Source: Alphaproteobacteria bacterium (GTDB lineage Bacteria > Pseudomonadota > Alphaproteobacteria > Sneathiellales > Sneathiellaceae). Taken from it: 15,036 bases of DNA. The stretch lies in assembly GCA_006226265.1 (NCBI GenBank), contig SBHH01000359.1, positions 1-15,036 of the forward strand. Direction: 5' to 3'. A program made the translations under genes and the position numbers. Shown here in pieces: positions 367 to 14,917 of the stretch. Each line of letters begins with the position of its first letter. Position 1 is the first letter of the stretch. Below the pieces are notes generated by a model that saw only the letters and a list, made by a program, of their open reading frames with translations, searched no databases and had not been told where the DNA came from.

Positions 367-972
367 CTACTTCCCCGCTATTTTATCATTCAGCATGTCG
401 ATCCACATGTCGATGATCTGGTCCCGATGACCGTTTTGCTCTTCGATACTGCCCTGCATGGAAAGACCGCGGAAAAGACAGACCGTCATTTCCATGAAAA
501 GTTCCCGGTTCTTTTCGGCAGCAGTGCCCGCAAAAATGTTATGCCACATTGTCCGGCGAAGATCCGTCAGTTCTTTGAGTGCCTCGACAAGCCCTTGGTG
601 CAACCGCTCATCCCCGCGTGCCGCCAGCATCATCTCCAGCGCCGCGACATATTGCGGATGGCCAAAAATGTCTTTCCAGAGAAATCGGATGTAGGATTCG
701 GCCGAAATTTCGGTTTCCGTACCGCCGACAACTTCCGCACGCTTGTTCTCCCAATCCTGCAGGAGATATTTGAACGAGGCATTCACGAGTTCGATCTTGG
801 TTGGGAAATGATGGGTCTGCGCACCCCGTGAAACACCGGCCCGTTCCGCAATCATGGTTGTCGTCGTTTTTTCATATCCGACGTCGGCGATGACCTCAAG
901 GGCCGCACGGCACAACCGGTCCCGCATTTCCTGAGTGCGTTCTCCTTGAGTTCTGGACACCGCCTTTTTCAT
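367..972 (-). CDS. TetR/AcrR-family transcriptional regulator
   Basis: A 201-residue protein of normal TetR-family length. The N-terminal three-helix DNA-binding domain covers about residues 14-62. Its helix-turn-helix core (TTTMIAERAGVSRGAQTHHF, 37-56, then PTK) matches the family pattern in which the recognition helix follows AGVSRG. The rest is a helical ligand-binding and dimerisation domain with no recognisable ligand motif. Such proteins are usually repressors released by a small molecule, often a substrate or acyl-CoA intermediate of the pathway they control. The gene is divergent from the TRAP operon, with 206 bases between them. That gap holds two copies of a palindrome (ACAAACA-N4-TGTTTGT), and a third lies before the ABC operon, so self-repression and control of both transporters are inferred. 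The ribosome binding site is weak (GCGAG, 7 bases before ATG). Family assignment is firm; targets and ligand are inferred. Confidence 0.93.
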   Translation of the reverse strand: MKKAVSRTQGERTQEMRDRLCRAALEVIADVGYEKTTTTMIAERAGVSRGAQTHHFPTKIELVNASFKYLLQDWENKRAEVVGGTETEISAESYIRFLWKDIFGHPQYVAALEMMLAARGDERLHQGLVEALKELTDLRRTMWHNIFAGTAAEKNRELFMEMTVCLFRGLSMQGSIEEQNGHRDQIIDMWIDMLNDKIAGK

Positions 973-1035
973 AACAACTCGCTTTGTTTTATTCGGTTTT
1001 TTTCAATTGGTGCGTGGCCCTGTCTTGCGCCCACG

Positions 1036-1064
1036 ATACAAACAACACCGTTTGAATATATCAA
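1036..1064 (-). promoter_or_regulatory. Candidate tetR promoter with degenerate operator (O2)
   Basis: A weaker copy of the palindrome lies at 1038-1055: ACAAACA, a 4-base spacer, then CGTTTGA, which matches 12 of 14 arm positions. On the minus strand it falls between a possible -35 box (TTGATA, 1064-1059) and a poor -10 box (TTGTAT, 1041-1036) 17 bases apart, leaving a leader of roughly 55-60 bases before the tetR ATG. This is the same layout as at the TRAP promoter. The operator match is what I see; the promoter boxes and autoregulation are inference. Confidence 0.45.
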
Positions 1065-1104
1065 TTCCCGCGCGGCGTCACCGGGGTAAAATTATAAAGG
1101 TATG

Positions 1105-1135
1105 TTGACAAACAAACAAGTATGTTTGTAAATTA
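1105..1135 (+). promoter_or_regulatory. TRAP operon promoter with TetR-type operator (O1)
   Basis: A perfect TTGACA (1105-1110) is followed, 18 bases later, by TAAATT (1129-1134), a fair -10 box. The spacer is filled by an 18-bp dyad, ACAAACA AGTA TGTTTGT (1112-1129), with 7-bp perfect arms. A repressor bound here would block RNA polymerase directly. The block from 1108 to 1135 is 24/28 identical to the block before the ABC operon at 4587-4614. The divergent tetR gene makes its product the obvious binder. The implied leader is about 35-40 bases. Confidence 0.72.
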
Positions 1136-1178
1136 TCTTATCCAGGTAAAGGTTGTCTAGCTCACGGGAGACAGAATT

Positions 1179-2201
1179 ATGGGAATGATGAAACATATGA
1201 TTGCACCTGCCTTGGCGGCAACGCTTGCATTTGCCGGGCAGGCTATGGCTCCGATCAACGCAGTGGCCGCGGAAATCACCTGGATCAGTGGCGGGCTTGG
1301 CTCCCCCAATTCCGACGAAGGAAAATCCGCAGAAAAGTTTGCCGACATGGTCACCGAACGCTCCAACGGGCGGATCAAGATTGAAATGCATGGCGGAGGA
1401 CAGCTCGGCACTGGACAGGAGCAGATGGAAGCGGTTTCCACAGGAACCCAACAGATGTTCATCTCCGCAGGCTCGCAAGCCTCCCGCCTCGTCAAGGCGT
1501 TCGGGGTCATCGATACAGCGTTCCTGTTCAAGGACTTCGGCCATATGGAACGCTTCATGGAATCCGACATGGGCCAGCAGCTCAATCAAAAGCTGGTGGA
1601 TGAATATGGTGTCCGGATTATTGCCTCCAACTGGTTTGCCCTGCCCCGCTATCTGATGCATCGGGACAAATTCATCGAAAGTCTCGGCGATGTGAAAGGC
1701 GTCCGCGTCCGCACCGCCAGTGTTCCGATGTATGTCCAGAACTACGAGAACATGGGCGCCGTCCCGGTCAAGATTGCCTATGGCGAGCAGTATCTAGCCC
1801 TGAGCCAGGGGGTCGTCGATATGACGGAATCAGCTGCCAATCGCATTTTGCCGACAAAACTGTATGAGGTCGCCCCCTATATCACCGAGGCCGATATGAT
1901 GTTCCCGCAGGTCAGTGTCTTTGTGAATGAGGAGGCTTGGAAAAAGCTTAGCCCGGAGGATCAGAAGCTGATTGCTGATGCCGCGCATGAAGCAGGTGTC
2001 TATCAGACCAAGCTGTCACAGAAAACCTTTGCTACCCAGAAGAAGGAAATCATGTCTAAGGGCGGAAAGTTCGAACGGATGCCGGAAGCCCTTCGCGACA
2101 AGTTTGCCGATAACACAAAACTACATCTTCAGGAAATGGTCAAAAAGGGCCTTATTCCGGACGGCTGGTATGAAAAAATTACAGCTCTGCGGAACCAATA
2201 A
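1179..2201 (+). CDS. TRAP transporter substrate-binding protein, DctP family
   Basis: The periplasmic binding protein of a tripartite (TRAP) transporter, 340 residues, normal for the family. A basic N-terminus and a hydrophobic signal peptide end near AVAA (28-31), so the mature protein would start at about E32. The central GVRVRTA (174-180) contains the position of the arginine (about R178) that in DctP proteins binds the substrate carboxylate. The downstream stretch resembling YGEQYLALSQGVVD (201-214) is the usual second signature, here followed by MTES rather than the common G-x-E/Q. This suggests an organic-acid ligand, but the substrate cannot be told. The ATG at 1179 has GGGAG (1166-1170) eight bases upstream. 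It is first in the TRAP operon, under the O1 operator, and is followed by a long hairpin that may favour its expression over the membrane subunits. Confidence 0.95.
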   Translation: MGMMKHMIAPALAATLAFAGQAMAPINAVAAEITWISGGLGSPNSDEGKSAEKFADMVTERSNGRIKIEMHGGGQLGTGQEQMEAVSTGTQQMFISAGSQASRLVKAFGVIDTAFLFKDFGHMERFMESDMGQQLNQKLVDEYGVRIIASNWFALPRYLMHRDKFIESLGDVKGVRVRTASVPMYVQNYENMGAVPVKIAYGEQYLALSQGVVDMTESAANRILPTKLYEVAPYITEADMMFPQVSVFVNEEAWKKLSPEDQKLIADAAHEAGVYQTKLSQKTFATQKKEIMSKGGKFERMPEALRDKFADNTKLHLQEMVKKGLIPDGWYEKITALRNQ

Positions 2202-2215
2202 ATTCCGCTGAGACG

Positions 2216-2266
2216 CCGGATGACGTCTTTCTAGGGACGTGATGAGAAAGAAAGGATGTCATCCGG
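2216..2266 (+). promoter_or_regulatory. Long intercistronic hairpin after the TRAP binding-protein gene
   Basis: CCGGATGAC (2216-2224) pairs perfectly with GTCATCCGG (2258-2266). The stem can be extended inward with two G-U pairs to about 15 pairs (2216-2230 with 2252-2266), leaving a 21-base loop. There is no T run after it, so it is not a standard terminator. It begins 15 bases after the binding-protein stop codon, where a stem can protect the upstream mRNA from 3' decay and lower expression of downstream permease genes. It also buries the ATG at 2256, which argues that translation of the next gene begins at 2298. Confidence 0.6.
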
Positions 2267-2297
2267 TATCTATTCCAAAGGGAGAAGGGTGTTACGA

Positions 2298-2819
2298 ATG
2301 CTGGATCTGTATGGGCGGTTCTGCGCCCTGATCGAGAGGCTGACCGGGCTTTTCTGCCTCGCCCTGATGTTCTGCATCGTCATCTCCATGGCCTGTCAGA
2401 TTTTCTTCCGCTACGCCCTGAACTATCCCCTTTCCTACACCGATGAAGTAAGCCTGATTGCCCTCACCTGGCTGACGTTCCTGGGAGCAGGCTGGATTTA
2501 CCGGAAACGGGAGCATATCACGGTGGAGCTGGTGCCGGCCTCCGATCCTGATGCTCCTTTTTCGCGCGCCTTCGATATCTGCGCCCAAATCGCGATCATT
2601 GTTATTTTGGCCGTGCTGATGAACGAGGCCATCCATCTTTCTCCCCGCGCCCTCAAGCTGAAGCTCGGCACGCTGGAACTGTCCCGCTTCGTCATGCATT
2701 TCCTGCCAATGATGATCGGCTCTGGCATTATCATGCTCTTCGCCCTGGAGCATGGCCTAAATTCCCTGTTCCGGCGGCAGGAGCCGGACAACCAATTCGA
2801 CAATCCGGCATCGGAGTAG
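2298..2819 (+). CDS. TRAP transporter small permease, DctQ family
   Basis: The small membrane subunit of the TRAP transporter, which joins the large permease in the inner membrane. From the ATG at 2298 it has 173 residues, typical for DctQ. Four membrane segments are visible at about 15-37, 50-68, 94-114 and 132-152. The family core FFRYALNYPLSYTDEVSLIA (36-55), then WLTFLGAGW and a basic R-K-R-E-H-I loop, is intact. An in-frame ATG at 2256 would add 14 residues, but it lies inside the 2216-2266 hairpin stem with its purine-rich stretch too close. The 2298 start has GGAGAAGGG (2281-2289) at good spacing, so I prefer it. The gene ends 6 bases before the large permease. Confidence 0.9.
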   Translation: MLDLYGRFCALIERLTGLFCLALMFCIVISMACQIFFRYALNYPLSYTDEVSLIALTWLTFLGAGWIYRKREHITVELVPASDPDAPFSRAFDICAQIAIIVILAVLMNEAIHLSPRALKLKLGTLELSRFVMHFLPMMIGSGIIMLFALEHGLNSLFRRQEPDNQFDNPASE

Positions 2820-2825
2820 CATTTC

Positions 2826-4112
2826 ATGGCCACATCTCTTCTTCTGCTACTCGGGCTTTTCCTGGTTCTGATTATCATCCGTATCCCGATCGCCTTTGCG
2901 ATGCTGATTATCGCGGCGCTTTATTTGATGATTGCGAATGTCCCGCTTCTGTTGCTTGCGCAAAAGGTTGTGGGCGGCGTCGATTCCTTCTCGTTGCTTG
3001 CCGTACCGCTTTTCCTGCTCGCCGGGTTCCTGATGAATACCATGGGGATCACGGAACGGATTTTCGCTTTCGCAGGCACCCTTGTACGGCATATTCCGGG
3101 CGGCCTTGGACATGTGAATGTGCTCGCATCCGTTATTTTTGCCGGCATGTCCGGATCAATCATCGCCGATGCGGGCGGTCTTGGCGCCGTCGAGATCAAG
3201 GCGATGCGCGAGGCAGGCTATCGGGACAGGTTCAGTGCCGCCATTACTGCCGCCTCCGCCCTGATCGGGCCGATCATTCCACCTTCCATCATTATGGTGA
3301 TCTATTCCTTCGTCACGGAAGTGTCAATTGGCCGGATGTTTCTGGCAGGCCTCATCCCCGGTCTGATGATGGCGGCGTCCATGATGATCCTGATCTATAT
3401 CATGGCAGAGATGGGGCAGGAAGAATGCCCGGTCCTGCCGCGCGCGAGCCTCCGGGAACTTGGCTCCGCCTTTCATGGCGCAATTCTGCCGATCCTCGCA
3501 CCGGTCATTTTGGTGGCCGGGATCATGAGCGGTATTTTTACACCGACTGAGGCGGGCGTGGTGGCTGTTCTATATGTGCTTGCAATCGGTGTTTTTCTGC
3601 TCCGCTTTCGGCTTTCGCATATTATCCACGCAACGAAGGAGGCGGCACGGGCAACGGCCGCGACGCTTTTCATTATCGCTGCTGCTTCGGTTTTCACCTG
3701 GATCGTTTCAACCGCCAATATTCCGGAAATTTTCAGCCAGTTCGTCAGCGGCTGGGTCAGCACGAAGCTTGGCGTTTTCATGGTTATTATCGTTTCCGTT
3801 CTCGTGCTTGGTATGGTCATGGAAGGGCTGCCGATCCTGATTATTTTTGGCCCCATTTTCCTCAATCTTGCAACCCATGTGGGGATCGATCCCGTCCATC
3901 TAGGCATCGTTTTCATCATGACAATCATGATCGGGGGTATAACCCCGCCTGTCGGCATCACTCTATATGTGGTTATGGCCATTGCGAAAGTTCCATTACC
4001 TGATTTCATGCGATCCATCTGGCCTTTTTACTTTGCCATTCTGACCGTCATTCTCTTGATCGTTCTATTCCCGTGGCTTTGCCTCTGGTTGCCTGACATG
4101 ATTTTTGGCTGA
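2826..4112 (+). CDS. TRAP transporter large permease, DctM family
   Basis: The large, transporting membrane subunit, driven by an ion gradient (sodium in characterised TRAP systems). It has 428 residues, the usual length, and is almost entirely hydrophobic, with roughly a dozen membrane segments. Family signatures are visible: PLFLLAGFLMN (61-71), FAGMSGSIIADAGGLG (105-120), GPIIPPS (148-154), GIFTPTEAG in the middle, and GGITPPVG near the C-terminus. These match the pseudo-repeated hairpin regions of the DctM fold. The ATG at 2826 has GGAG (2813-2816) upstream and lies 6 bases after the small-permease stop, so the two are translationally linked. Separate Q and M subunits are the normal arrangement; there is no fusion. 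Confidence 0.96.
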   Translation: MATSLLLLLGLFLVLIIIRIPIAFAMLIIAALYLMIANVPLLLLAQKVVGGVDSFSLLAVPLFLLAGFLMNTMGITERIFAFAGTLVRHIPGGLGHVNVLASVIFAGMSGSIIADAGGLGAVEIKAMREAGYRDRFSAAITAASALIGPIIPPSIIMVIYSFVTEVSIGRMFLAGLIPGLMMAASMMILIYIMAEMGQEECPVLPRASLRELGSAFHGAILPILAPVILVAGIMSGIFTPTEAGVVAVLYVLAIGVFLLRFRLSHIIHATKEAARATAATLFIIAAASVFTWIVSTANIPEIFSQFVSGWVSTKLGVFMVIIVSVLVLGMVMEGLPILIIFGPIFLNLATHVGIDPVHLGIVFIMTIMIGGITPPVGITLYVVMAIAKVPLPDFMRSIWPFYFAILTVILLIVLFPWLCLWLPDMIFG

Positions 4113-4125
4113 GGGACGTGGCAGA

Positions 4126-4515
4126 ATGACAGATCTTATGCGCATTATTCTCTTTTGCCAGATCGGCTATGTCGCAATCGCCCTTTTCTTCAATGGCATC
4201 AGCTGGATACGGATACAGCGAGGCCTCTCCCCCTTAACAGCGACCTCTCCGGTCAAAGGGCTTGTCTCAATGCTGGTCGTGCTGGCAGTCATTCTTACCT
4301 GGCCGTTGCTGGGCGGCTGGATTTTCTGGCTGGGTTGGATATTCCTGATTATTCGAATCATTCCGGGCGGCATTCTTATGCATTTTCGCCGTCTCGTGAT
4401 CGAGCGTAATTTAAAGGGCTATACTTCTCCGCTTTCCGGGGTTGTTGCCATGACAATCAATATTTTCGGCATTATTGCCGGAGTTTTGGGTCTTTTTGCC
4501 GGATTCCCGGCGTGA
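4126..4515 (+). CDS. Small multi-spanning membrane protein, fourth gene of the TRAP operon
   Basis: A 129-residue hydrophobic protein I do not recognise. Four membrane segments are likely, at about 5-25, 45-63, 65-85 and 104-126, with a basic cytoplasmic loop (MHFRRLVIERNLKGY, 85-99) between the third and fourth. The start chosen is the ATG at 4126, nine bases after GAGGGA (4111-4116). A TTG at 4105, inside the large-permease gene, would extend it by seven residues but has no matching ribosome binding site. It follows the large-permease stop by 13 bases, so it is co-transcribed with dctP/Q/M-type genes. An accessory membrane factor or quality-control partner for the transporter is possible but unproven. 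No conserved polar or catalytic motif stands out. Confidence 0.8.
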   Translation: MTDLMRIILFCQIGYVAIALFFNGISWIRIQRGLSPLTATSPVKGLVSMLVVLAVILTWPLLGGWIFWLGWIFLIIRIIPGGILMHFRRLVIERNLKGYTSPLSGVVAMTINIFGIIAGVLGLFAGFPA

Positions 4516-4559
4516 CGAGAGTGAGTTCGGGGATTTGACGATCGCCAATTGGAGGAGAC

Positions 4560-4614
4560 TTGACAGAAGATATTTTTAGCCTTATTACAAACAAACATAT
4601 TTGTTTGTAAATTA
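4560..4614 (+). promoter_or_regulatory. ABC operon promoter region with TetR-type operator (O3)
   Basis: The 18-bp dyad ACAAACA TATT TGTTTGT lies at 4591-4608. It also sits within a larger 26-bp near-palindrome (4585-4610, arms TTACAAACAA and TTGTTTGTAA) whose centre is offset by two bases. The block 4587-4614 matches the TRAP promoter block at 24 of 28 positions. Two promoter readings are possible: ATTACA (4584-4589) with TAAATT (4608-4613), which copies the TRAP layout, or a perfect TTGACA (4560-4565) with TATTAC (4583-4588) at 17-base spacing. Either would be blocked by a protein on the dyad. The leader from here to the ATG at 4725 also holds a short GGCGTG/CACGCC stem (4670-4683) of unknown role. 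Confidence 0.7.
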
Positions 4615-4724
4615 ACGGAATAATCCGGTCGTAAAAAACCGCGAGGCCGAACCCGGCCCGCCGAACAAAGGCGTGAACACGCCATAATTTACAGCCACCA
4701 TTCAGGGACGGGGGCAGGCAGAAG

Positions 4725-5519
4725 ATGACGAAACTGATTGCATCCAGCTTTGTTACCGCCGTTCTGGCATTTCTGGTACTGCCGGTGATCTTTATCGTCT
4801 GGGTCGCCTTTTTCGATAGCTCCTTTCTCACATTTCCACCGCCCGGCTATACGTTCCACTGGTTTGCGGAGGCGGCCCGCAACCCCGTCTTCCTGAACGG
4901 CTTCGTGACCAGCCTGATCGTTGTGGCAATTGCCTCGACGATTTCCGTCTTCTCCGGCGCTATGGCTGCCATCGTGCTGGTGCGCTATCAGTTTCCGGGA
5001 CGCGAAGCCTTGAACGGCCTGCTTCTCTCACCTCTGATCATCCCGAATATCGTACTTGGCATTGCGCTTTATATATTCTTCATCGCCATTGCCGATACGC
5101 TGTCCATCGATCTCATTGCGAGCAATGTCGGACTGATCATAGCCCATACAATGCTGGTCCTGCCCTGGGCCGTCCGGCTGATCGGCGCAAACCTGATCGG
5201 CATGGACCGCTCGATTGAGGAGGCTGCGTGCAATCTTGGCGCAAAAAGCGGCACGGTCTTCTTTCGCGTCACCCTCCCCCTCATGCGGGGCGGCATCGTC
5301 GCGGCGGCACTATTCAGCTTCATCGTTTCATTTGAAAATCTGGAGCTTTCCCTGCTTATTGTGAGCCCGGGTCACACGACCCTGCCGATCGCCCAAATGC
5401 AATATCTCGAATTCAACATGGACCCGACGATCGCCGCGGTCAGTACTGTGCAGATCCTCGTGATCGCCGCACTTCTTCTCATCACCGACAGATTTGTCAA
5501 ACTAAGCAGGATTGTCTGA
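4725..5519 (+). CDS. ABC transporter permease, PotC-like
   Basis: An inner-membrane permease of a spermidine/putrescine-type ABC importer, 264 residues, normal for PotC. About six membrane segments are visible. The cytoplasmic coupling motif EEAACNLGAKSGTVFF (165-180) followed by RVTLPL is the standard EAA-x3-G-x9-x-LP loop that docks on the ATPase. The closing sequence with SPGHTTLPIAQMQY (214-227) is also typical of PotC relatives. It is the first gene of the operon, about 110 bases downstream of the O3 operator, and its TGA overlaps the ATPase ATG by one base. The ribosome binding site is modest (CAGG, 4715-4718). It pairs with the second permease at 7692. The Pot-like family covers many ligands besides polyamines, so the substrate is open. 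Confidence 0.93.
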   Translation: MTKLIASSFVTAVLAFLVLPVIFIVWVAFFDSSFLTFPPPGYTFHWFAEAARNPVFLNGFVTSLIVVAIASTISVFSGAMAAIVLVRYQFPGREALNGLLLSPLIIPNIVLGIALYIFFIAIADTLSIDLIASNVGLIIAHTMLVLPWAVRLIGANLIGMDRSIEEAACNLGAKSGTVFFRVTLPLMRGGIVAAALFSFIVSFENLELSLLIVSPGHTTLPIAQMQYLEFNMDPTIAAVSTVQILVIAALLLITDRFVKLSRIV

Positions 5520-6592
5520 TGGCCTCGCTTTATATCAAAAATGTCACCAAGGATTTCGGCCCGGTCCGGGCAATCGACAATCTTTCCCTCGCCATTGAAG
5601 GACCGGAACTGATCGCCCTTCTGGGTCCAAGCGGCTGCGGCAAAACCACGCTTCTTCGCATGATTGCCGGCTTTGTCGAGGCAACTTCCGGCCGCATCCG
5701 CATTGGCGAGCGGGATGTGACCGATGTGCCGCCCAATTTGCGCAACACCGGCATGATTTTCCAGAGCTACGCCCTGTTCCCGCATATGACGGTTGCCGAA
5801 AACGTCGGCTTCGGCCTTGAAATGCGGAAGATCGCAAAGGACGAGCGGATGAAGCGCGTTCGCGAAGCTCTCTCCCTCGTTCATCTCAACGGATATGAGG
5901 ATCGCTACCCGAAACAGATGTCGGGTGGACAGCGTCAGCGCGTCGCCATCGCCCGCGCTCTGGTTATCCGTCCCGATGTATTCCTGCTGGACGAGCCCCT
6001 GTCCAACCTTGACGCCGTCCTTCGTCAGAGCGTCGGCAATGAAATCCGCGAGTTGCAGCAGCGCCTTGGCCTTACCTCTGTCTTTGTCACCCACGACCAG
6101 AAGGAAGCGCTGATGCTGGCCGACCGGCTGGTCGTCATGAAAGCGGGACGCATCATTCAGGAAGGCAGCGGCAGCGATATCTACAACCATCCGAATTGCC
6201 GCTTTGTTGCAAGTTTCCTTGGCAAGTCGAATTTCTTTGAAGGGCACCGGCAAACCGGCGGAAGCTTTACGACGGCGGGCGGGCTGACTTTCCGCTGCCC
6301 GGACAGCAATCTCGCCGATGGCGCGTCCGCACTTCTTAGTGTTCGCCCGGAAAGCATCCGCCTTGGGCCGGAAGCCTCAAAACTCGACAATACACTGGAG
6401 GCAAAGGTTGCCGGGATTACCTATCTCGGTTCGCTGACGGAGGTCGAGCTTGGTTTTCCCGGCAGCGACAACATTACTGTCCAGCTTCAAAACCGGCCGG
6501 GTGCAGAGTTCAGGGCCGACATCGGAGCGGCCGTACTGGCGGGCTGGACCGCCGGGTCCGCCCATCTCATCGCCGATCACGGCGAAAGCTGA
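5519..6592 (+). CDS. ABC transporter ATP-binding protein, PotA-like
   Basis: The ATPase that powers the importer, 357 residues. All motifs are present: Walker A GPSGCGKT (36-43), Q-loop Q82, signature MSGGQRQRVAIARAL (134-148), Walker B FLLDEP (155-160), D-loop SNLD (162-165) and switch H192 in FVTHDQKEA. The C-terminal part, about 230-350, is the TOBE regulatory domain seen in PotA, MalK and UgpC relatives, including the usual SVRPESI stretch (274-280). It starts on an ATG that overlaps the preceding permease stop (TGATG), indicating translational coupling, and is followed after 31 bases by the binding-protein gene. Confidence 0.96.
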   Translation: MASLYIKNVTKDFGPVRAIDNLSLAIEGPELIALLGPSGCGKTTLLRMIAGFVEATSGRIRIGERDVTDVPPNLRNTGMIFQSYALFPHMTVAENVGFGLEMRKIAKDERMKRVREALSLVHLNGYEDRYPKQMSGGQRQRVAIARALVIRPDVFLLDEPLSNLDAVLRQSVGNEIRELQQRLGLTSVFVTHDQKEALMLADRLVVMKAGRIIQEGSGSDIYNHPNCRFVASFLGKSNFFEGHRQTGGSFTTAGGLTFRCPDSNLADGASALLSVRPESIRLGPEASKLDNTLEAKVAGITYLGSLTEVELGFPGSDNITVQLQNRPGAEFRADIGAAVLAGWTAGSAHLIADHGES

Positions 6593-6623: not shown

Positions 6624-7673
6624 ATGCATAAATTCGAGATGAAACGGCGAACGTTCCTGAAAAGCGCCGCTACGCTATCCGCAGGTGCCACCATTTCAGG
6701 CGCACTGCCCGCCTGGGCATCGACCAAGGAAGCCGTCATGGCAACATGGGGCGGCGATTATTCCCGCCTGCTGGGCGAAATAGTGCAACCGATTTCCATG
6801 AAGAAGGATGATGTCTCGGTTGTTTTCGATACCGGCAGCACCAGCGCCCGAAAGACCAAGGTCATTGCTCAATCAAAACGACCGACGAATGCGTTGGATG
6901 TTGTGAGTTTCGCCAATTCGGATATGCATCTGTTGAGTGAAAATGGTTATCTTGCGCAGCTGACGGAAAAGGAAATTCCGGAACTGAAGAATGTTTATCC
7001 GCAATTCGCAACCAGCTATTCAATTCCGCATATCTATAGCGCATTGGTAATCGTCTATAACAAGGACAAGGTAAAGGCGCCCAAATCCTACAAGGATCTC
7101 TGGAACAGGGAGTATGAGGGCAAGATCGGTCTCGCCAATGCGCTTTACGCGCAGGCCATTGTGGCCTCCGCTCTTGCCCATGGCGGCTCCAACGAAAATT
7201 TTGAACCTGGCTATAAACCGCTGCTGGAGCTTAAAAAGGCCGGTGCAAAAATCCTTCCCTCCAATGAAGCCGTCGCCAATGCCTTCAAGAGCGGGGATAT
7301 CGGCGTCACACTGATGTGGCGCGCCCGGGCCTATCAATGGAAGAAACTCGGTTTACCGCTTGCCTTTGCCGTTCCGTCAGAAGGCGCGCTACCGGTAATT
7401 TTCGAAGCCGCGATGACCAGAAATGCCGGTCATCCGGAAGCCGCCACCGTGTTCCTCAACGCCATGCTGAACCCGGAAGCACAGGCAGGTTTCGCCGAAA
7501 AGATGGGTTACATTCCAACCGTCAGGAACGCCAAACTGCCGGGCGATTTGATGGAAACGATTGGCTTCAGCGACACCGACCGGGAGAATTTCGTCAAGAC
7601 CAACTACGCCTACGTGGCGGAGCAGGGTCGGAAAATGCTCGAGTGGTGGTCGCAGACCTTTAAGGCTGCGTAA
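6624..7673 (+). CDS. ABC transporter substrate-binding protein, PotD-like, Tat-type signal
   Basis: A periplasmic binding protein of the spermidine/putrescine-like family, 349 residues. The N-terminus has a twin-arginine motif, KRRTFLKSAA (7-16), then a weakly hydrophobic stretch ending in PAWA (29-32). Export in a folded state through Tat is therefore likely. The mature protein opens with ATWGGDYSR, typical of this group, and has LWNREYEGKIGL and the late RARAY region expected of a two-lobe fold. The start at 6624 follows AGGAGGAG (6613-6620). Longer in-frame starts reach back to 6450 inside the ATPase gene and are rejected because the Tat signal would become internal. The gene sits between ATPase and second permease. 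The ligand is unknown; the acidic residues that bind polyamines in PotD cannot be aligned reliably by eye. Confidence 0.92.
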   Translation: MHKFEMKRRTFLKSAATLSAGATISGALPAWASTKEAVMATWGGDYSRLLGEIVQPISMKKDDVSVVFDTGSTSARKTKVIAQSKRPTNALDVVSFANSDMHLLSENGYLAQLTEKEIPELKNVYPQFATSYSIPHIYSALVIVYNKDKVKAPKSYKDLWNREYEGKIGLANALYAQAIVASALAHGGSNENFEPGYKPLLELKKAGAKILPSNEAVANAFKSGDIGVTLMWRARAYQWKKLGLPLAFAVPSEGALPVIFEAAMTRNAGHPEAATVFLNAMLNPEAQAGFAEKMGYIPTVRNAKLPGDLMETIGFSDTDRENFVKTNYAYVAEQGRKMLEWWSQTFKAA

Positions 7674-7691: not shown

Positions 7692-8558
7692 ATGACAAAA
7701 CCCAGCAGACAGGCCATGACCGCGTCCATGATGATGATCCCCGCAACGGGGATCATCCTTCTGGCGCTTGTTATTCCTGCGCTCATTCTCCTGCGCTACA
7801 GTTTTAACGCCTATGACCCGACCCAGCTTATGGTCGAGGCCTTCACGCTGGACAATTACACAAGATTCTTTCACGAACCCTATTTTCAGCAGGTCATGAT
7901 CACGACGCTGACCGTTTCGCTTGAATGTACGCTGGCCAGCCTGTTGCTTGGCTATCCGGTCGCCTATTTTCTCGCGACGACCAGATCGCGGTTTAAAAGC
8001 CTGCTGATCATCCTGACGATTTTCCCGCTGCTGGTCGGGAATGTCGTCCGGGCGGCTGGCTGGATGACCCTTTTCGGCACGAAAGGCTTTATCAATGTCG
8101 TGCTGATGTATCTCGATATTATCGATAGTCCGATCAAGATGATGTATACGACTTTTTCCGTCTTCGTCGGTATGCTCTGCGTCATCCTGCCCTTCATGAT
8201 CCTGACCCTGCAAGGGGTTCTGGAGAGCATCGATTTCTCCCTGACGGAGGCCGCCGAAAACCTCGGTGCATCGCCTTTCACGGCTTTCCGGCGGGTGATC
8301 CTGCCGCTTTCCCTGCCCGGCATCGCAACCGGATCGATCCTCGTGTTCATCCTGTGCATGAATGCCTATTCGACACCGGTCCTGCTGGGCGGTCCCAGTT
8401 TCTCGATGATGGCGCCCGCGCTTTATGACCAGATCGCCTCCGCGTCGAACTGGCCGTTCGGGGCGGCGCTCGCCTTTATCCTGACTCTCGCCACCATTCT
8501 CGCAACCCTGATTTCGAGCCTTTATTTCCGGCGCAAGCTGAAAGCGATGGCGGCATAG
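7692..8558 (+). CDS. ABC transporter permease, PotB-like
   Basis: The second inner-membrane permease of the importer, 288 residues, normal for PotB. Six membrane segments are apparent. The coupling loop TEAAENLGASPFTAFRRVIL (185-204) then PLSLPG carries the EAA motif. The segment NAYSTPVLLGGPSFSMM (224-240) is a PotB-type signature. It starts 18 bases after the binding-protein stop, with GGAAG upstream of the ATG at 7692. An 11-bp perfect hairpin lies inside its first 22 codons. It completes the transporter with the permease at 4725; gene order permease-ATPase-binding protein-permease is unlike the potABCD order of enteric bacteria. Confidence 0.94.
   Translation: MTKPSRQAMTASMMMIPATGIILLALVIPALILLRYSFNAYDPTQLMVEAFTLDNYTRFFHEPYFQQVMITTLTVSLECTLASLLLGYPVAYFLATTRSRFKSLLIILTIFPLLVGNVVRAAGWMTLFGTKGFINVVLMYLDIIDSPIKMMYTTFSVFVGMLCVILPFMILTLQGVLESIDFSLTEAAENLGASPFTAFRRVILPLSLPGIATGSILVFILCMNAYSTPVLLGGPSFSMMAPALYDQIASASNWPFGAALAFILTLATILATLISSLYFRRKLKAMAA
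7733..7757 (+). promoter_or_regulatory. Strong hairpin just after the ABC binding-protein gene
   Basis: GATGATCCCCG (7733-7743) and CGGGGATCATC (7747-7757) form a perfect 11-bp stem with a CAA loop. It begins 60 bases past the binding-protein stop and 42 bases into the PotB-like gene, encoding part of MMMIPATGIIL. No T run follows. It could slow 3' decay of the upstream mRNA or early translation of the permease. Function is inferred; the symmetry is directly visible. Confidence 0.45.
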
Positions 8559-8614: not shown

Positions 8615-9805
8615 ATGAGCTTCCTATCTACTGACGTCTATGAGTATCGGCGCGAGTTGCTGGACACTATGATGGATGAAAACGGCCTCGATGGCGTTGT
8701 CATTTTCGGCGCCGATTTCTTCCAGTTTTTCTCGAACTTCCATGTTGACGTGCAGACATGGGAGCGCCCCATTGCCCTGATCATCCCTCGGAAAGGTGAG
8801 CCCGTCGCCATTCTGAATGCGCTTTCCACCCACCATATTGGTTTTGCCCGCGACCGCGGCAGCCTTTGGACAGGAGAGGTCGATTACTATTGTGAATTCC
8901 CGGTCGCCGCGGATGATCCCCGTAATCCCAAGGGATTTATAGAACAACTTGCGGACAAACTTAACGCCCTCGGTCTTTCCGACGCCATGCTCGGGATTGA
9001 CAGCGGGTCCGGGTATCTCGCCAAAGTCGGGGAGACTCACCGCAACCTCAAGGTCAAAACTCTAGTCGCAGAATTCCGGGCCCTTCGCTGGATCAAACAC
9101 AGCGAAGAAATCGATATTATGAAAAAGCTCTGCGCCCTTACTGACTGGATGCAGGGCCATTACCGGCAAGGCATCCGCCCCGGTCGCCTGGTGCATGAAC
9201 TGGACTATTCCATTGCGACGAAAACCTTCGAGGAAGCGGCAAAGCGCTATCCTGGTGAAAATTTCGAGTTGCGCTTCTTCACTTTGAGCGGCCCCTCCTC
9301 CTCGTCTCCGCACGGCGATACGGGACAGGCCGGAGCCTGCATTCAGGAGGGCGACGGCATCGTCAATATTCTTATCCCGCGCCTCAACGGTGTAACGATC
9401 GAGAACGAACGAACATATTTCTGCGGCAAACCGTCCGATCTGCAGCGCTGCGCGTTCGAAGCGGCACGCCTTGCCAACCTTGCCGCTATCGAGCAACTGG
9501 TCGCCGGCAATTCGGTCAGCGCTGTCGATGAAGCCCCGCGTCGGATTTTTGCCGAGCATGGCTTCTCTCGCAATATCATGCATCGCACCGGCCATGGCAT
9601 GGGCCTGATCGGCCACGAATTTCCGGAAGACATGGCCTTCAATGACCGGCCGCTGATCGAGAATGAGGTCTATTCGGCGGAGCCCGGCATTTACCTTCCA
9701 GGTGTCGGCGGCTTCCGTTTCGACGATACAGTTGTAGTCGGGGAGGCCGGTCCGATCGTGCTCACCACCACACCGAAGGATCTGGCAAGCCAGACCATCA
9801 ACTGA
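8615..9805 (+). CDS. Creatinase-like / Xaa-Pro peptidase-like M24 family hydrolase
   Basis: A 396-residue two-domain protein: an N-terminal creatinase-type domain (about 10-155) and a C-terminal pita-bread catalytic domain (about 165-390). H233 (SSSPHG), H327 (GHGMG) and E356 (AEPGIY) are present. Of the five usual metal ligands, however, the first Asp is replaced by I252, the second by E263 (before ERT) and the last Glu by D370 (RFDD). The stretch GDGIVNILIP...ERTYF resembles metal-free creatinase more than prolidase. The enzyme is therefore more likely a C-N hydrolase acting on a small imported compound than a classical dinuclear-metal peptidase. It has no signal peptide, so it is cytoplasmic. 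It is last in the ABC operon, 56 bases after the permease, with AAAGG (8601-8605) before its ATG, and its substrate is probably what that transporter brings in. Confidence 0.88.
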   Translation: MSFLSTDVYEYRRELLDTMMDENGLDGVVIFGADFFQFFSNFHVDVQTWERPIALIIPRKGEPVAILNALSTHHIGFARDRGSLWTGEVDYYCEFPVAADDPRNPKGFIEQLADKLNALGLSDAMLGIDSGSGYLAKVGETHRNLKVKTLVAEFRALRWIKHSEEIDIMKKLCALTDWMQGHYRQGIRPGRLVHELDYSIATKTFEEAAKRYPGENFELRFFTLSGPSSSSPHGDTGQAGACIQEGDGIVNILIPRLNGVTIENERTYFCGKPSDLQRCAFEAARLANLAAIEQLVAGNSVSAVDEAPRRIFAEHGFSRNIMHRTGHGMGLIGHEFPEDMAFNDRPLIENEVYSAEPGIYLPGVGGFRFDDTVVVGEAGPIVLTTTPKDLASQTIN

Positions 9806-9904
9806 CCAATTACAGGTTCTAGCAACGGGCTCAACTCCCTGTCCCATTGCTGCATGGTATGGCCTGCAGACAGCTTTGCCGCAGTTTGTCGCCATGCCGT
9901 ACTT

Positions 9905-13402: not shown

Positions 13403-14917
13403 TTAGAAGGTCCGCCAATCCCCGCTTTGTTCAAAGGCATGGGCAGCCTGATATATTGTCATTTCGCAATAGTCGTCCGCAACGAGCATCATTCCGATCG
13501 GCAATCCTTCGCTCAAGCCGCAAGGGATCGACATGGCCGGAAAGTGGCCGGAATTGAAGGCCGAGGTATTGCCGACCATTTCAAAGGCCCGGGTCACATA
13601 TTCCATCAGGCTGGCATCCGGCGCCGGAATTTTCTGCGCCTTCATCGGCAGGGTCGGAACCAGCAGAAGATCGAACTTCCGGAACATCTCCTTGTATTTT
13701 GTACGGACGAGCCGCATCAGATTCTGCGCCTTGCCGTAGAAACGGCCGCGGTATTGCGTCTGGAAAAACTCCCCGATGAACATACAGGTTTTGAGGGAGT
13801 GAGACAATTCATCTGCGCGGCTCCGCCAGTTTCCGAAATGATCGATCATGGAGGGAAGATAGAGCCCTTCATAATTCGTCCCGCCGCAATTGCCGTGCAT
13901 CATGTGATCCTGCAACCCTTCCACCGTGATGGCAACCCAGGCATCGCCCGCAAGATTATGTTCGGGCAGGGAAATTTCGCTCACAATCGCACCGAGCCTT
14001 GCAAATCGCTCCGCCGCCTCGCGCACCTTGGCATCGACATCGGCCTCGCTTTCCGGGCGGCCGAAGCCTTCTTTCAGAATACCGATCCTGAGGCCATTGC
14101 AGCCACGGTCGAGCGCCTCTGTATAGCGATAGACTTTCGGCGCATACTGCCGCGGATCGAGCCCGTCTTCGCCCGCCAGCACTTCAAGGAACAGCGCATT
14201 GTCGGCGACATTGCTGGTGATCGGCCCGACATGATCTATCGTCTGCTCAACCGGCATGATCCCGGTATAGGGCACCAGGCCATGGGTTGCCTTCATGCCA
14301 TAGACCCCGCAGTTGGAGGAGGGGATGCGGATCGATCCGCCCTGATCCCCGGCAATGGCCATATCCACCTCGCCCGAGGCGACAAGGGCGGCGGACCCGC
14401 TGGACGATCCGCCCGCCATATATCCATGCTTCCAGGGATTATGAACCGGGCCTGTGGCATTTGTGTGGCTGCCTCCGGAAAGACAGAGATTTTCGCAATG
14501 GGACTTGCCGACGATGATGGCGCCCGCATCGAGAATGCGGGTCACGATGGTCGCATCGATCTCGGGCGTATATCCCTCCATGATAGAAGAGCCGTTCATC
14601 ATCGGCACGCCAGCAAGGCAGACCGTATCCTTCAAGACAATTTTCTTGTCGCGGAGGGGGCCGTCCATCGCCCCCTTGATATTGGTTTTGTAGTACCAGG
14701 CATTGAGCGGGTTTTCAGAAGGCGACGGCCGGTAGCCCGGGGAACGCGGATAGCGCACCTCTGGCAGATAGTCAGGCAGCGCATCCAGCCGGTCATAGCT
14801 CTGGATATAAGGCTCCATGATCTCGGAAAACTGGCGAAGTTCGTCATCGCTCAAGGACATGTTGAAGCGGTCCGCCATGGCGCGCATCTGTGAAAGGCTT
14901 GGACGTTTGACTGTCAT
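13403..14917 (-). CDS. Amidase, amidase-signature family (nitrile-pathway aliphatic/aryl amidase type)
   Basis: Hydrolyses a carboxamide to the acid and ammonia. From the ATG at 14917 it has 504 residues. The Ser-cisSer-Lys triad is K96 (VLKDTV), S171 (GGSSSGS) and S195 (DQGGSIRIP). As I recall, the Rhodococcus N-771 amidase triad carries these same numbers, which supports both the family and the start. The stretch GVYGMKATHGLVPYTG (204-219) and IDHVGPIT (227-234) are typical of amidases found beside nitrile hydratases, but none is visible here. Longer in-frame starts up to 15004 exist; the 14917 start has GGGGAC (14927-14922) about four bases upstream and is preferred. It lies 16 bases after a partial upstream gene and 12 before the synthetase, all in one operon. 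The exact amide is unknown. Confidence 0.93.
   Translation of the reverse strand: MTVKRPSLSQMRAMADRFNMSLSDDELRQFSEIMEPYIQSYDRLDALPDYLPEVRYPRSPGYRPSPSENPLNAWYYKTNIKGAMDGPLRDKKIVLKDTVCLAGVPMMNGSSIMEGYTPEIDATIVTRILDAGAIIVGKSHCENLCLSGGSHTNATGPVHNPWKHGYMAGGSSSGSAALVASGEVDMAIAGDQGGSIRIPSSNCGVYGMKATHGLVPYTGIMPVEQTIDHVGPITSNVADNALFLEVLAGEDGLDPRQYAPKVYRYTEALDRGCNGLRIGILKEGFGRPESEADVDAKVREAAERFARLGAIVSEISLPEHNLAGDAWVAITVEGLQDHMMHGNCGGTNYEGLYLPSMIDHFGNWRSRADELSHSLKTCMFIGEFFQTQYRGRFYGKAQNLMRLVRTKYKEMFRKFDLLLVPTLPMKAQKIPAPDASLMEYVTRAFEMVGNTSAFNSGHFPAMSIPCGLSEGLPIGMMLVADDYCEMTIYQAAHAFEQSGDWRTF

What the first reader, a model, noticed from the sequence alone, without database searches (positions are those of the whole stretch)
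1108..4614. Near-identical operators in front of the TRAP and the ABC operons
The blocks 1108-1135 and 4587-4614 agree at 24 of 28 bases. The only differences are the four spacer bases of a dyad, ACAAACA-N4-TGTTTGT. Both sit on core promoter elements. The only regulator visible is the TetR protein encoded divergently at 367-972. This points to one repressor controlling a secondary and a primary transporter of unrelated mechanism, which is an unusual pairing.
Basis: partly seen in the sequence, partly recalled or inferred. Interest (0 to 1): 0.72.

Follow-up and report, generated by a model that had tools for sequence, protein, structure and literature searches.

The report
One TetR repressor, two importer operons
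In a marine Sneathiella-like bacterium two unrelated nutrient importers very probably share one TetR-type switch, because the same DNA docking site lies on both promoters and is kept in three related species; this is a sound but fairly ordinary piece of gene regulation.

Summary
In detail: 1108-1135 and 4587-4614 agree at 24 of 28 bases, on promoter-like elements of a TRAP operon and a Pot-like ABC operon. The locus (tetR, dctPQM, a small ORF, potC-A-D-B, an M24 hydrolase) recurs in 3 other genomes of the genus (Sneathiella, by database names) with both sites in place. tetR orthologue, dctM, potC and M24 were found in the same 4 of 24 genus genomes. Site 1 matches a published SmeT (TetR-family) operator oligo at 26 of 30 bases. 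Site 1 follows the -35; site 2 overlaps -10 and the probable start. Best explanation: the local TetR represses both importers, perhaps also itself. Binding, repression and ligand are inferred. 'Unusual pairing' is overstated: predicted TauR2 regulons contain ABC plus TRAP, and a paralogous Sneathiella module puts two TRAP importers, an amidohydrolase and a related TetR behind a related dyad. New member of a known kind.

The parts
367..972 (-). TetR-family regulator, 201 aa, divergent from the TRAP operon
   Evidence: PF00440 TetR_N 49.8 bits against cut-off 24; orthologues 76, 74 and 63 % identical in 3 congeners
1091..1119 (-). candidate tetR promoter: TTGTTT (1119-1114), 17 bp, TATAAT (1096-1091); its -35 lies inside operator 1 (autoregulation is inferred and weak)
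   Evidence: a like candidate in L027 (TTGTTT-17-TATAGT), none in L028, a different one in L029
1105..1134 (+). candidate core promoter of the TRAP operon: TTGACA, 18 bp, TAAATT
   Evidence: the -35 is identical in the 3 orthologues, the -10 is not
1108..1129 (.). operator 1, ACAAACA-N8-TGTTTGT, from the end of the -35 through the spacer
   Evidence: 16 of 22 columns invariant in 4 species, against 6 of 60 upstream and 1 of 60 downstream
1179..2201 (+). dctP, TRAP solute-binding protein
   Evidence: PF03480 209.9 bits; NF037995 above cut-off, TIGR00787 just below (173.9 against 175.05)
2256..2819 (+). dctQ-like small permease (start codon uncertain)
   Evidence: position between dctP and dctM; weak YiaM match below cut-off; 63, 52 and 48 % orthologues
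2826..4112 (+). dctM, TRAP large permease
   Evidence: TIGR00786 385.3 bits, above cut-off 268
4105..4515 (+). small hydrophobic ORF closing the TRAP operon, no family match (start may be 4126)
   Evidence: no NCBIfam, Pfam or PHROG match; 45, 52 and 42 % orthologues in the same place
4560..4588 (+). candidate core promoter of the ABC operon: TTGACA, 17 bp, TATTAC (TATAAC in the 3 orthologues)
   Evidence: not listed by the stricter scan
4587..4608 (.). operator 2, ACAAACAAA-CATA-TTTGTTTGT, overlapping the end of -10 and the probable start site
   Evidence: 20 of 22 columns invariant in 4 species, against 4 of 60 upstream and 1 of 60 downstream
4725..5519 (+). PotC-like ABC permease
   Evidence: best match PotC, 134 bits, below the equivalog cut-off; 84, 83 and 74 % orthologues
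5519..6592 (+). ABC ATPase of the PotA/PhnT type
   Evidence: no equivalog cut-off reached among the rows shown; 77, 79 and 73 % orthologues
6624..7673 (+). PotD-like solute-binding protein; ATG at 6624
   Evidence: PF13416 97.9 bits; start read from the sequence printed
7692..8558 (+). PotB-like ABC permease
   Evidence: 85, 80 and 71 % orthologues
8615..9805 (+). M24 (pita-bread) hydrolase with altered metal-ligand positions, last conserved gene of the unit
   Evidence: PF00557 114 bits; alignments

Best explanation
The TetR protein at 367-972 binds as a dimer to the two 22-bp operators (1108-1129 and 4587-4608) and shuts off both importer operons by covering their core promoters. It may also limit its own synthesis, because a tetR promoter candidate runs through operator 1. 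An unknown inducer, most simply the imported compound or its product, would release it, so that TRAP importer, ABC importer and M24 hydrolase come on together for one substrate class. Shown here: the two sites, their conservation, register, overlap with promoter-like elements, and co-occurrence with tetR. Inferred: binding by this TetR, repression, the inducer, autoregulation and the shared substrate.
For: Locus with both sites in 4 of 4 genomes that hold the tetR orthologue. tetR orthologue (62 % or more), M24, potC and dctM in the same 4 of 24 genus genomes. Of 9 exact N8 matches in the 24 genus genomes, 7 are these sites. Operators invariant at 16 and 20 of 22 columns while flanks drift. 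An invariant -35 at site 1 and a recurring -35/-10 pair at site 2. Site 1 matches the SmeT operator oligo at 26 of 30 bases; with that oligo the best window place away from the two sites scores 10 against 22. A paralogous TetR module in the genus has a related dyad, ACAGTC-N2-GACTGT within 2 mismatches, about 50-70 bp before its first dctP in 5 of 5 loci where that stretch was examined. The window TetR, its orthologues and the TetRs of G005, G014 and G288 share V/I-SRGA at the recognition helix.
Against: No binding, footprint or expression data. No genome was found that keeps the transporters but lacks tetR, so co-loss cannot separate 'needed by tetR' from 'inherited as one block'. The -10 at site 1 is not fixed across species and the window scan finds no excess of promoter-like places. 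PmeR and CymR oligos match site 2 no better (score 11) than another window place; the most distant orthologue's sites match SmeT at only 20 and 19 of 30. The tetR-dctP gap is 206 bp, just above the 200-bp range in which divergent TetRs regulate most reliably (PMC3511530 passages). No plus-strand terminator-like place lies between the small ORF and potC, one lies inside the end of that ORF, so part of the ABC expression may be read-through.
Confidence: 0.82

Rival explanations
1. The sites are bound by a different regulator encoded elsewhere (another TetR-family or global protein), and the adjacent tetR serves something else.
For: Several TetR-family proteins bind ACAAAC-type dyads (SmeT, PmeR, TtgR, CymR oligos), so the motif alone does not name the binder. 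The own genome is 70 % complete, so other regulators may be unseen.
Against: Exact N8 matches in the 4 tetR-bearing genomes occur only at these loci. At up to 2 mismatches, places elsewhere in the 4 genomes number 27 against 40 for the reversed control pattern (counted). tetR is adjacent in all four.
Confidence: 0.1
2. The TetR acts as an activator, or in different senses at the two promoters.
For: The two sites lie differently: directly after the -35 at site 1, over -10 and the probable start at site 2.
Against: Both positions cover bases RNA polymerase needs; SmeT is reported to repress by such interference (PMC3128119 passage).
Confidence: 0.05
3. Site 2 is a copy of the site-1 promoter carried along by a local duplication, without own function.
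For: 24 of 28 identical bases within one locus, including six bases beyond the dyad.
Against: Each site keeps its own inner sequence through species: the 22 bp of site 2 are letter-identical in 3 of 4 species, and outside the shared block the surroundings of the two sites differ. A copy older than the four species would have drifted like its flanks.
Confidence: 0.03

Closest known systems
SmeT of Stenotrophomonas maltophilia with the smeDEF/smeT operator (PMC3128119, passages seen)
   Same: TetR-family repressor; operator oligo matches site 1 at 26 of 30 bases; one site serves two promoters by blocking RNA polymerase
   Different: SmeT controls an efflux pump; here importers, with a second operator; the TetR here is below the NCBIfam cut-offs of AcrR and MtrR
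CymR with cym and cmt operons (PMC1654148, passages seen)
   Same: one TetR-type repressor, two operons with similar putative operators; outer arms ACAAACA and TGTTTGT
   Different: 12 bp between the arms instead of 8; catabolic operons for aromatic compounds, not two importers
TauR2 predicted regulons (PMC5320631, passages seen)
   Same: one regulator with an ABC importer (oppABCDF) and TRAP transporters among its predicted targets
   Different: MocR-type regulator, other motif, other genes
Paralogous Sneathiella module: TRAP a, amidohydrolase, TRAP b with tetR (L098, L101, L104, L108)
   Same: TetR of the same broad group; two importers plus a C-N hydrolase; dyad at the head of the cluster
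   Different: TetR 26-30 % identical to the window's; both importers are TRAP; tetR lies inside the cluster; inner dyad is ACAGTC-N2-GACTGT

Membership tests
TetR-family repressor | N-terminal TetR_N helix-turn-helix, about 200 aa | tested here: met
   PF00440, 49.8 bits, cut-off 24
TetR-family repressor | conserved palindrome on the promoter region next to tetR | tested here: met
   that it is bound is not shown
TetR-family repressor | binds the operator and is released by a ligand | not testable with these tools
   needs purified protein
Named TetR subfamilies (BetI, AcrR, MtrR and others) | curated NCBIfam score | tested here: not met
   17 of 17 matches below cut-off, best BetI 45.6 against 118
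SmeT-type operator | sequence match to a published operator oligo | tested here: met
   site 1 26 of 30, site 2 22 of 30; the sites of L029 only 20 and 19 of 30
TRAP transporter (DctPQM) | DctP and DctM domains in one operon | tested here: met
   PF03480; TIGR00786 above cut-off
Spermidine/putrescine PotABCD | equivalog scores of the four subunits | tested here: not met
   PotC 134 of 326, PotA 331 of 482, PotD 59 of 582, PotB 195 of 348 bits; Pot-like by architecture only
M24 prolidase / aminopeptidase P | metal-ligand set D, D, H, E, E (ligand set recalled) | tested here: not met
   against 1pv9 the D, D and last E read I, E and D; against 4ege the first may align with N; I252, E263 and D370 are invariant in six homologues
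M24 ectoine hydrolase DoeA | NCBIfam NF038259 score | tested here: not met
   35.3 against 575 bits

The most novel reading that the evidence does not exclude
This TetR is one branch of a wider alphaproteobacterial group of TetR regulators devoted to 'double importer' modules: two uptake systems plus one C-N bond hydrolase under one 22-bp dyad class. In the window's branch one TRAP importer has been exchanged for an ATP-driven ABC importer while the operator arrangement stayed, giving a low-cost and a high-affinity route for the same compound under one switch.
Probability: 0.35. Interest if true: 0.5.

Novelty: new member of a known kind. Interest (0 to 1): 0.34.

Why it matters
It gives a ready regulator-operator pair for an uncharacterised TetR and ties a TRAP importer, an ABC importer and an M24-fold hydrolase of unknown substrate to one signal. 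Finding the inducer could name the substrate of all three. It also offers a test of why bacteria keep a secondary and a primary importer under one switch.

Tried and rejected
Third site at 1038-1055: not kept in the orthologues, rejected. Wider regulon: N8 at up to 2 mismatches in the 4 genomes gave no excess over the reversed pattern (27 against 40). Substrate by homology: sequence searches of solved structures with M24, DctP and PotD gave only broad families; that with the TetR gave partial matches to several TetR proteins. In one orthologue (L029) the seven frames tested beside tetR hold GGT, a GntR regulator, DHDPS, Aldedh, DAO, proline racemase and MR_MLE domains, which I recall as a hydroxyproline-type set; the four matched-window and three extra frames tested beside the locus in L027 and two in L028 show none of it, and not every flanking frame was tested, so no substrate is claimed. 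M24 relatives outside the genus: 2 of 385 class genomes (3 with the own; E 1e-60); their 19-kb stretches show no dctP, dctM, potC or potD match, L058 has other ABC ATPase genes.

Scanning TetR relatives for N8 dyads: of 36 loci given, 4 are the window and its orthologues and 4 repeat others, so 28 distinct distant loci; 7 of 28 had a match at 2 mismatches or fewer, 2 of 28 a control match; three of the 7 are one genus. In that call spacers 4 and 12 gave as many hits (13) as spacer 8, because of the ACAA periodicity, so it does not decide the register; searches do. Of 9 further stretches fetched, 3 had an N8 match at 2 mismatches or fewer, 6 none; of those 6, three hold no stretch before dctP a. 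Two of 5 paralogous modules have the N8 arms only at 4 mismatches, though the inner dyad is within 2. dctP starts are estimates.

The 8 named loci (partial TetR matches, 30-38 %) were not examined. G007 and a second G011 TetR match were not fetched with flanks. Papers opened but not used: PMC4052901 (none of the terms), PMC10132767 (passages). Literature: Sneathiella with TetR (33 papers, 10 listed, none of those titles on this), TetR family with TRAP transporter and EMSA (1 paper, listing only), TetR with TRAP and spermidine ABC (0), also 26, 29-31 and 61 by listing. I saw no study of this switch; the library is open-licence only and listings were partial. No structure was predicted.
Full report
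What is in the window. tetR (367-972, minus) faces a TRAP operon (dctP, dctQ, dctM, a 136-aa ORF without family match), followed by a Pot-like ABC operon (potC, potA, potD, potB) and an M24-fold hydrolase. Two AMP-binding-enzyme genes and an amidase follow on the other strand; they had no match in the orthologous stretches, of which only about 1 to 3.4 kb beyond the M24 gene was held, and are left out.

The observation. 1108-1135 and 4587-4614 agree at 24 of 28 bases. The exact 22-bp pattern ACAAACA-N8-TGTTTGT occurs twice in the window and in 0 of 1000 shuffles of it; 20000 shuffles of each of the two intergenic regions gave none either.

Orthologous loci. A search of 142 genomes with the TetR gave matches in 18; besides the own genome 3 congeners have close relatives (77, 74 and 62 % identity), the other 14 only 26-33 %. 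The three loci carry the same gene order and both sites. A protein search names proteins on contigs of the same length as two of these 'Sneathiella litorea' and 'Sneathiella sp.'. In the 24 genus genomes M24, potC and dctM are each found in the same 4 (E 1e-40, 1e-50, 1e-100). The other 20, some incomplete, had none at these thresholds, so the unit seems gained or lost as a block; a genome with the transporters but without tetR was not available as a test.

The operator. Aligned by site, 16 of 22 (site 1) and 20 of 22 (site 2) columns are invariant in four species, against 6 and 4 of 60 upstream and 1 and 1 of 60 downstream. Over all eight sites the arms fit N8 spacing exactly in 7 and with one mismatch in the eighth (L027 site 1); N4 spacing fits exactly in 5. 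Site 2 is a perfect 9-4-9 dyad in the window and in two orthologues. In the 24 genus genomes the exact N8 pattern occurs 9 times, 7 at these sites; the other two lie in G014 and G006.

Promoters. Site 1 begins at the last three bases of a TTGACA that is identical in the three orthologues. In the window a TAAATT follows at 18 bp; in the orthologues the best -10-like partner lies at 16 to 19 bp and is not conserved. Site 2 begins at the fifth base of the -10 (TATTAC; TATAAC in the orthologues), 17 or 18 bp after TTGACA or TTGACT. The consensus scan of 900-4800 found promoter-like places at chance level (2 against 3.3), one of them at site 1. Both positions, if these are the promoters, would block RNA polymerase. 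On the minus strand a TTGTTT-17-TATAAT candidate for tetR has its -35 inside operator 1; L027 has a like one, L028 none, L029 another.

Which protein binds. The SmeT oligo matches site 1 at 26 of 30 and site 2 at 22 of 30; the TtgR oligo 23 of 32 and 22 of 32 (oligos from passages of PMC3128119 and PMC4538802). PmeR and CymR match less, at site 2 no better than another place in the window. CymR's operator has the same outer arms with a wider gap, and CymR serves two operons (PMC1654148 passages). Together with adjacency and co-occurrence this makes the local TetR the likely binder. It is not shown.

Related modules. TetRs of 26-38 % identity lie in clusters with TRAP genes. In G288 (L096) an exact N8 dyad (6506-6527) heads a tetR-amidohydrolase-TRAP gene row, and a 2-mismatch dyad (9880-9901) lies between another TRAP dctP and a second tetR. 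In Sneathiella G005 (L098) a dyad with 1 mismatch (13642-13663) heads a cluster of TRAP a, amidohydrolase and TRAP b with tetR. Of 9 further stretches with TetR matches fetched, 7 hold this cluster whole or in part: G009, G011 and G010 with all eight genes; G002, G023 and G008 cut by contig ends; G014 without TRAP b. G022 lacks it; G057, of another family, has only a TetR and an amidohydrolase. Before dctP a the inner dyad ACAGTC-N2-GACTGT is present within 2 mismatches in 5 of 5 loci where that stretch was examined (G005, G009, G014, G011, G010). Two importers plus a C-N hydrolase beside such a TetR is thus a recurring theme; in the window the second importer is an ABC system.

Precedent. Predicted TauR2 regulons hold oppABCDF and TRAP transporters (PMC5320631 passages). 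Joint control of a TRAP and an ABC importer is therefore not new in kind. In the same passages ectoine (EutR) regulons carry mostly an ABC importer, and a TRAP importer in two species that lack it.

The M24 protein. Against the Xaa-Pro dipeptidase 1pv9 the positions of the two metal aspartates and the last glutamate read I, E and D, while the histidine and one glutamate are kept; against 4ege the first position may align with N (which residues bind metal is recalled). I252, E263 and D370 are invariant in six homologues. It is therefore likely not a standard two-metal prolidase. Its substrate is unknown.

Limits. The own genome is 70 % complete. L028 contains 101 N. Everything rests on sequence; four species of one genus are known here to carry the locus.

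Noticed in passing
L098:5113-13663, L101, L104, L108: A paralogous Sneathiella cluster joins two TRAP importers, an amidohydrolase and a related TetR behind a dyad ACAGTC-N2-GACTGT.
   Followed up: partly
L096:1580-10656: In G288 two TetR genes and two TRAP gene rows alternate, with one exact and one 2-mismatch N8 dyad.
   Followed up: partly
8615-9805: M24-fold hydrolase with altered metal-ligand positions, conserved in six homologues; perhaps a creatinase-like, metal-free enzyme (inference).
   Followed up: partly
L029:202-8482: Beside one orthologous locus lies a gene set with domains I recall from hydroxyproline catabolism, and a gamma-glutamyltranspeptidase; possible hint at the substrate.
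   Followed up: no
L029:12880-12930: Operator 2 of this species sits in a longer palindrome running from CCCCTATAACAAACA to TGTTTGTTATAGGGG.
   Followed up: no
L029:9484-10415: The dctP match of this locus comes in two pieces in different frames; an assembly error or a broken gene.
   Followed up: no
4105-4515: Conserved 136-aa hydrophobic ORF closing the TRAP operon, no match in NCBIfam, Pfam or PHROGs.
   Followed up: no
2-307: Seems the tail of a longer protein: its first 71 residues match inside a 671-aa frame of L027 that has no Pfam match.
   Followed up: no
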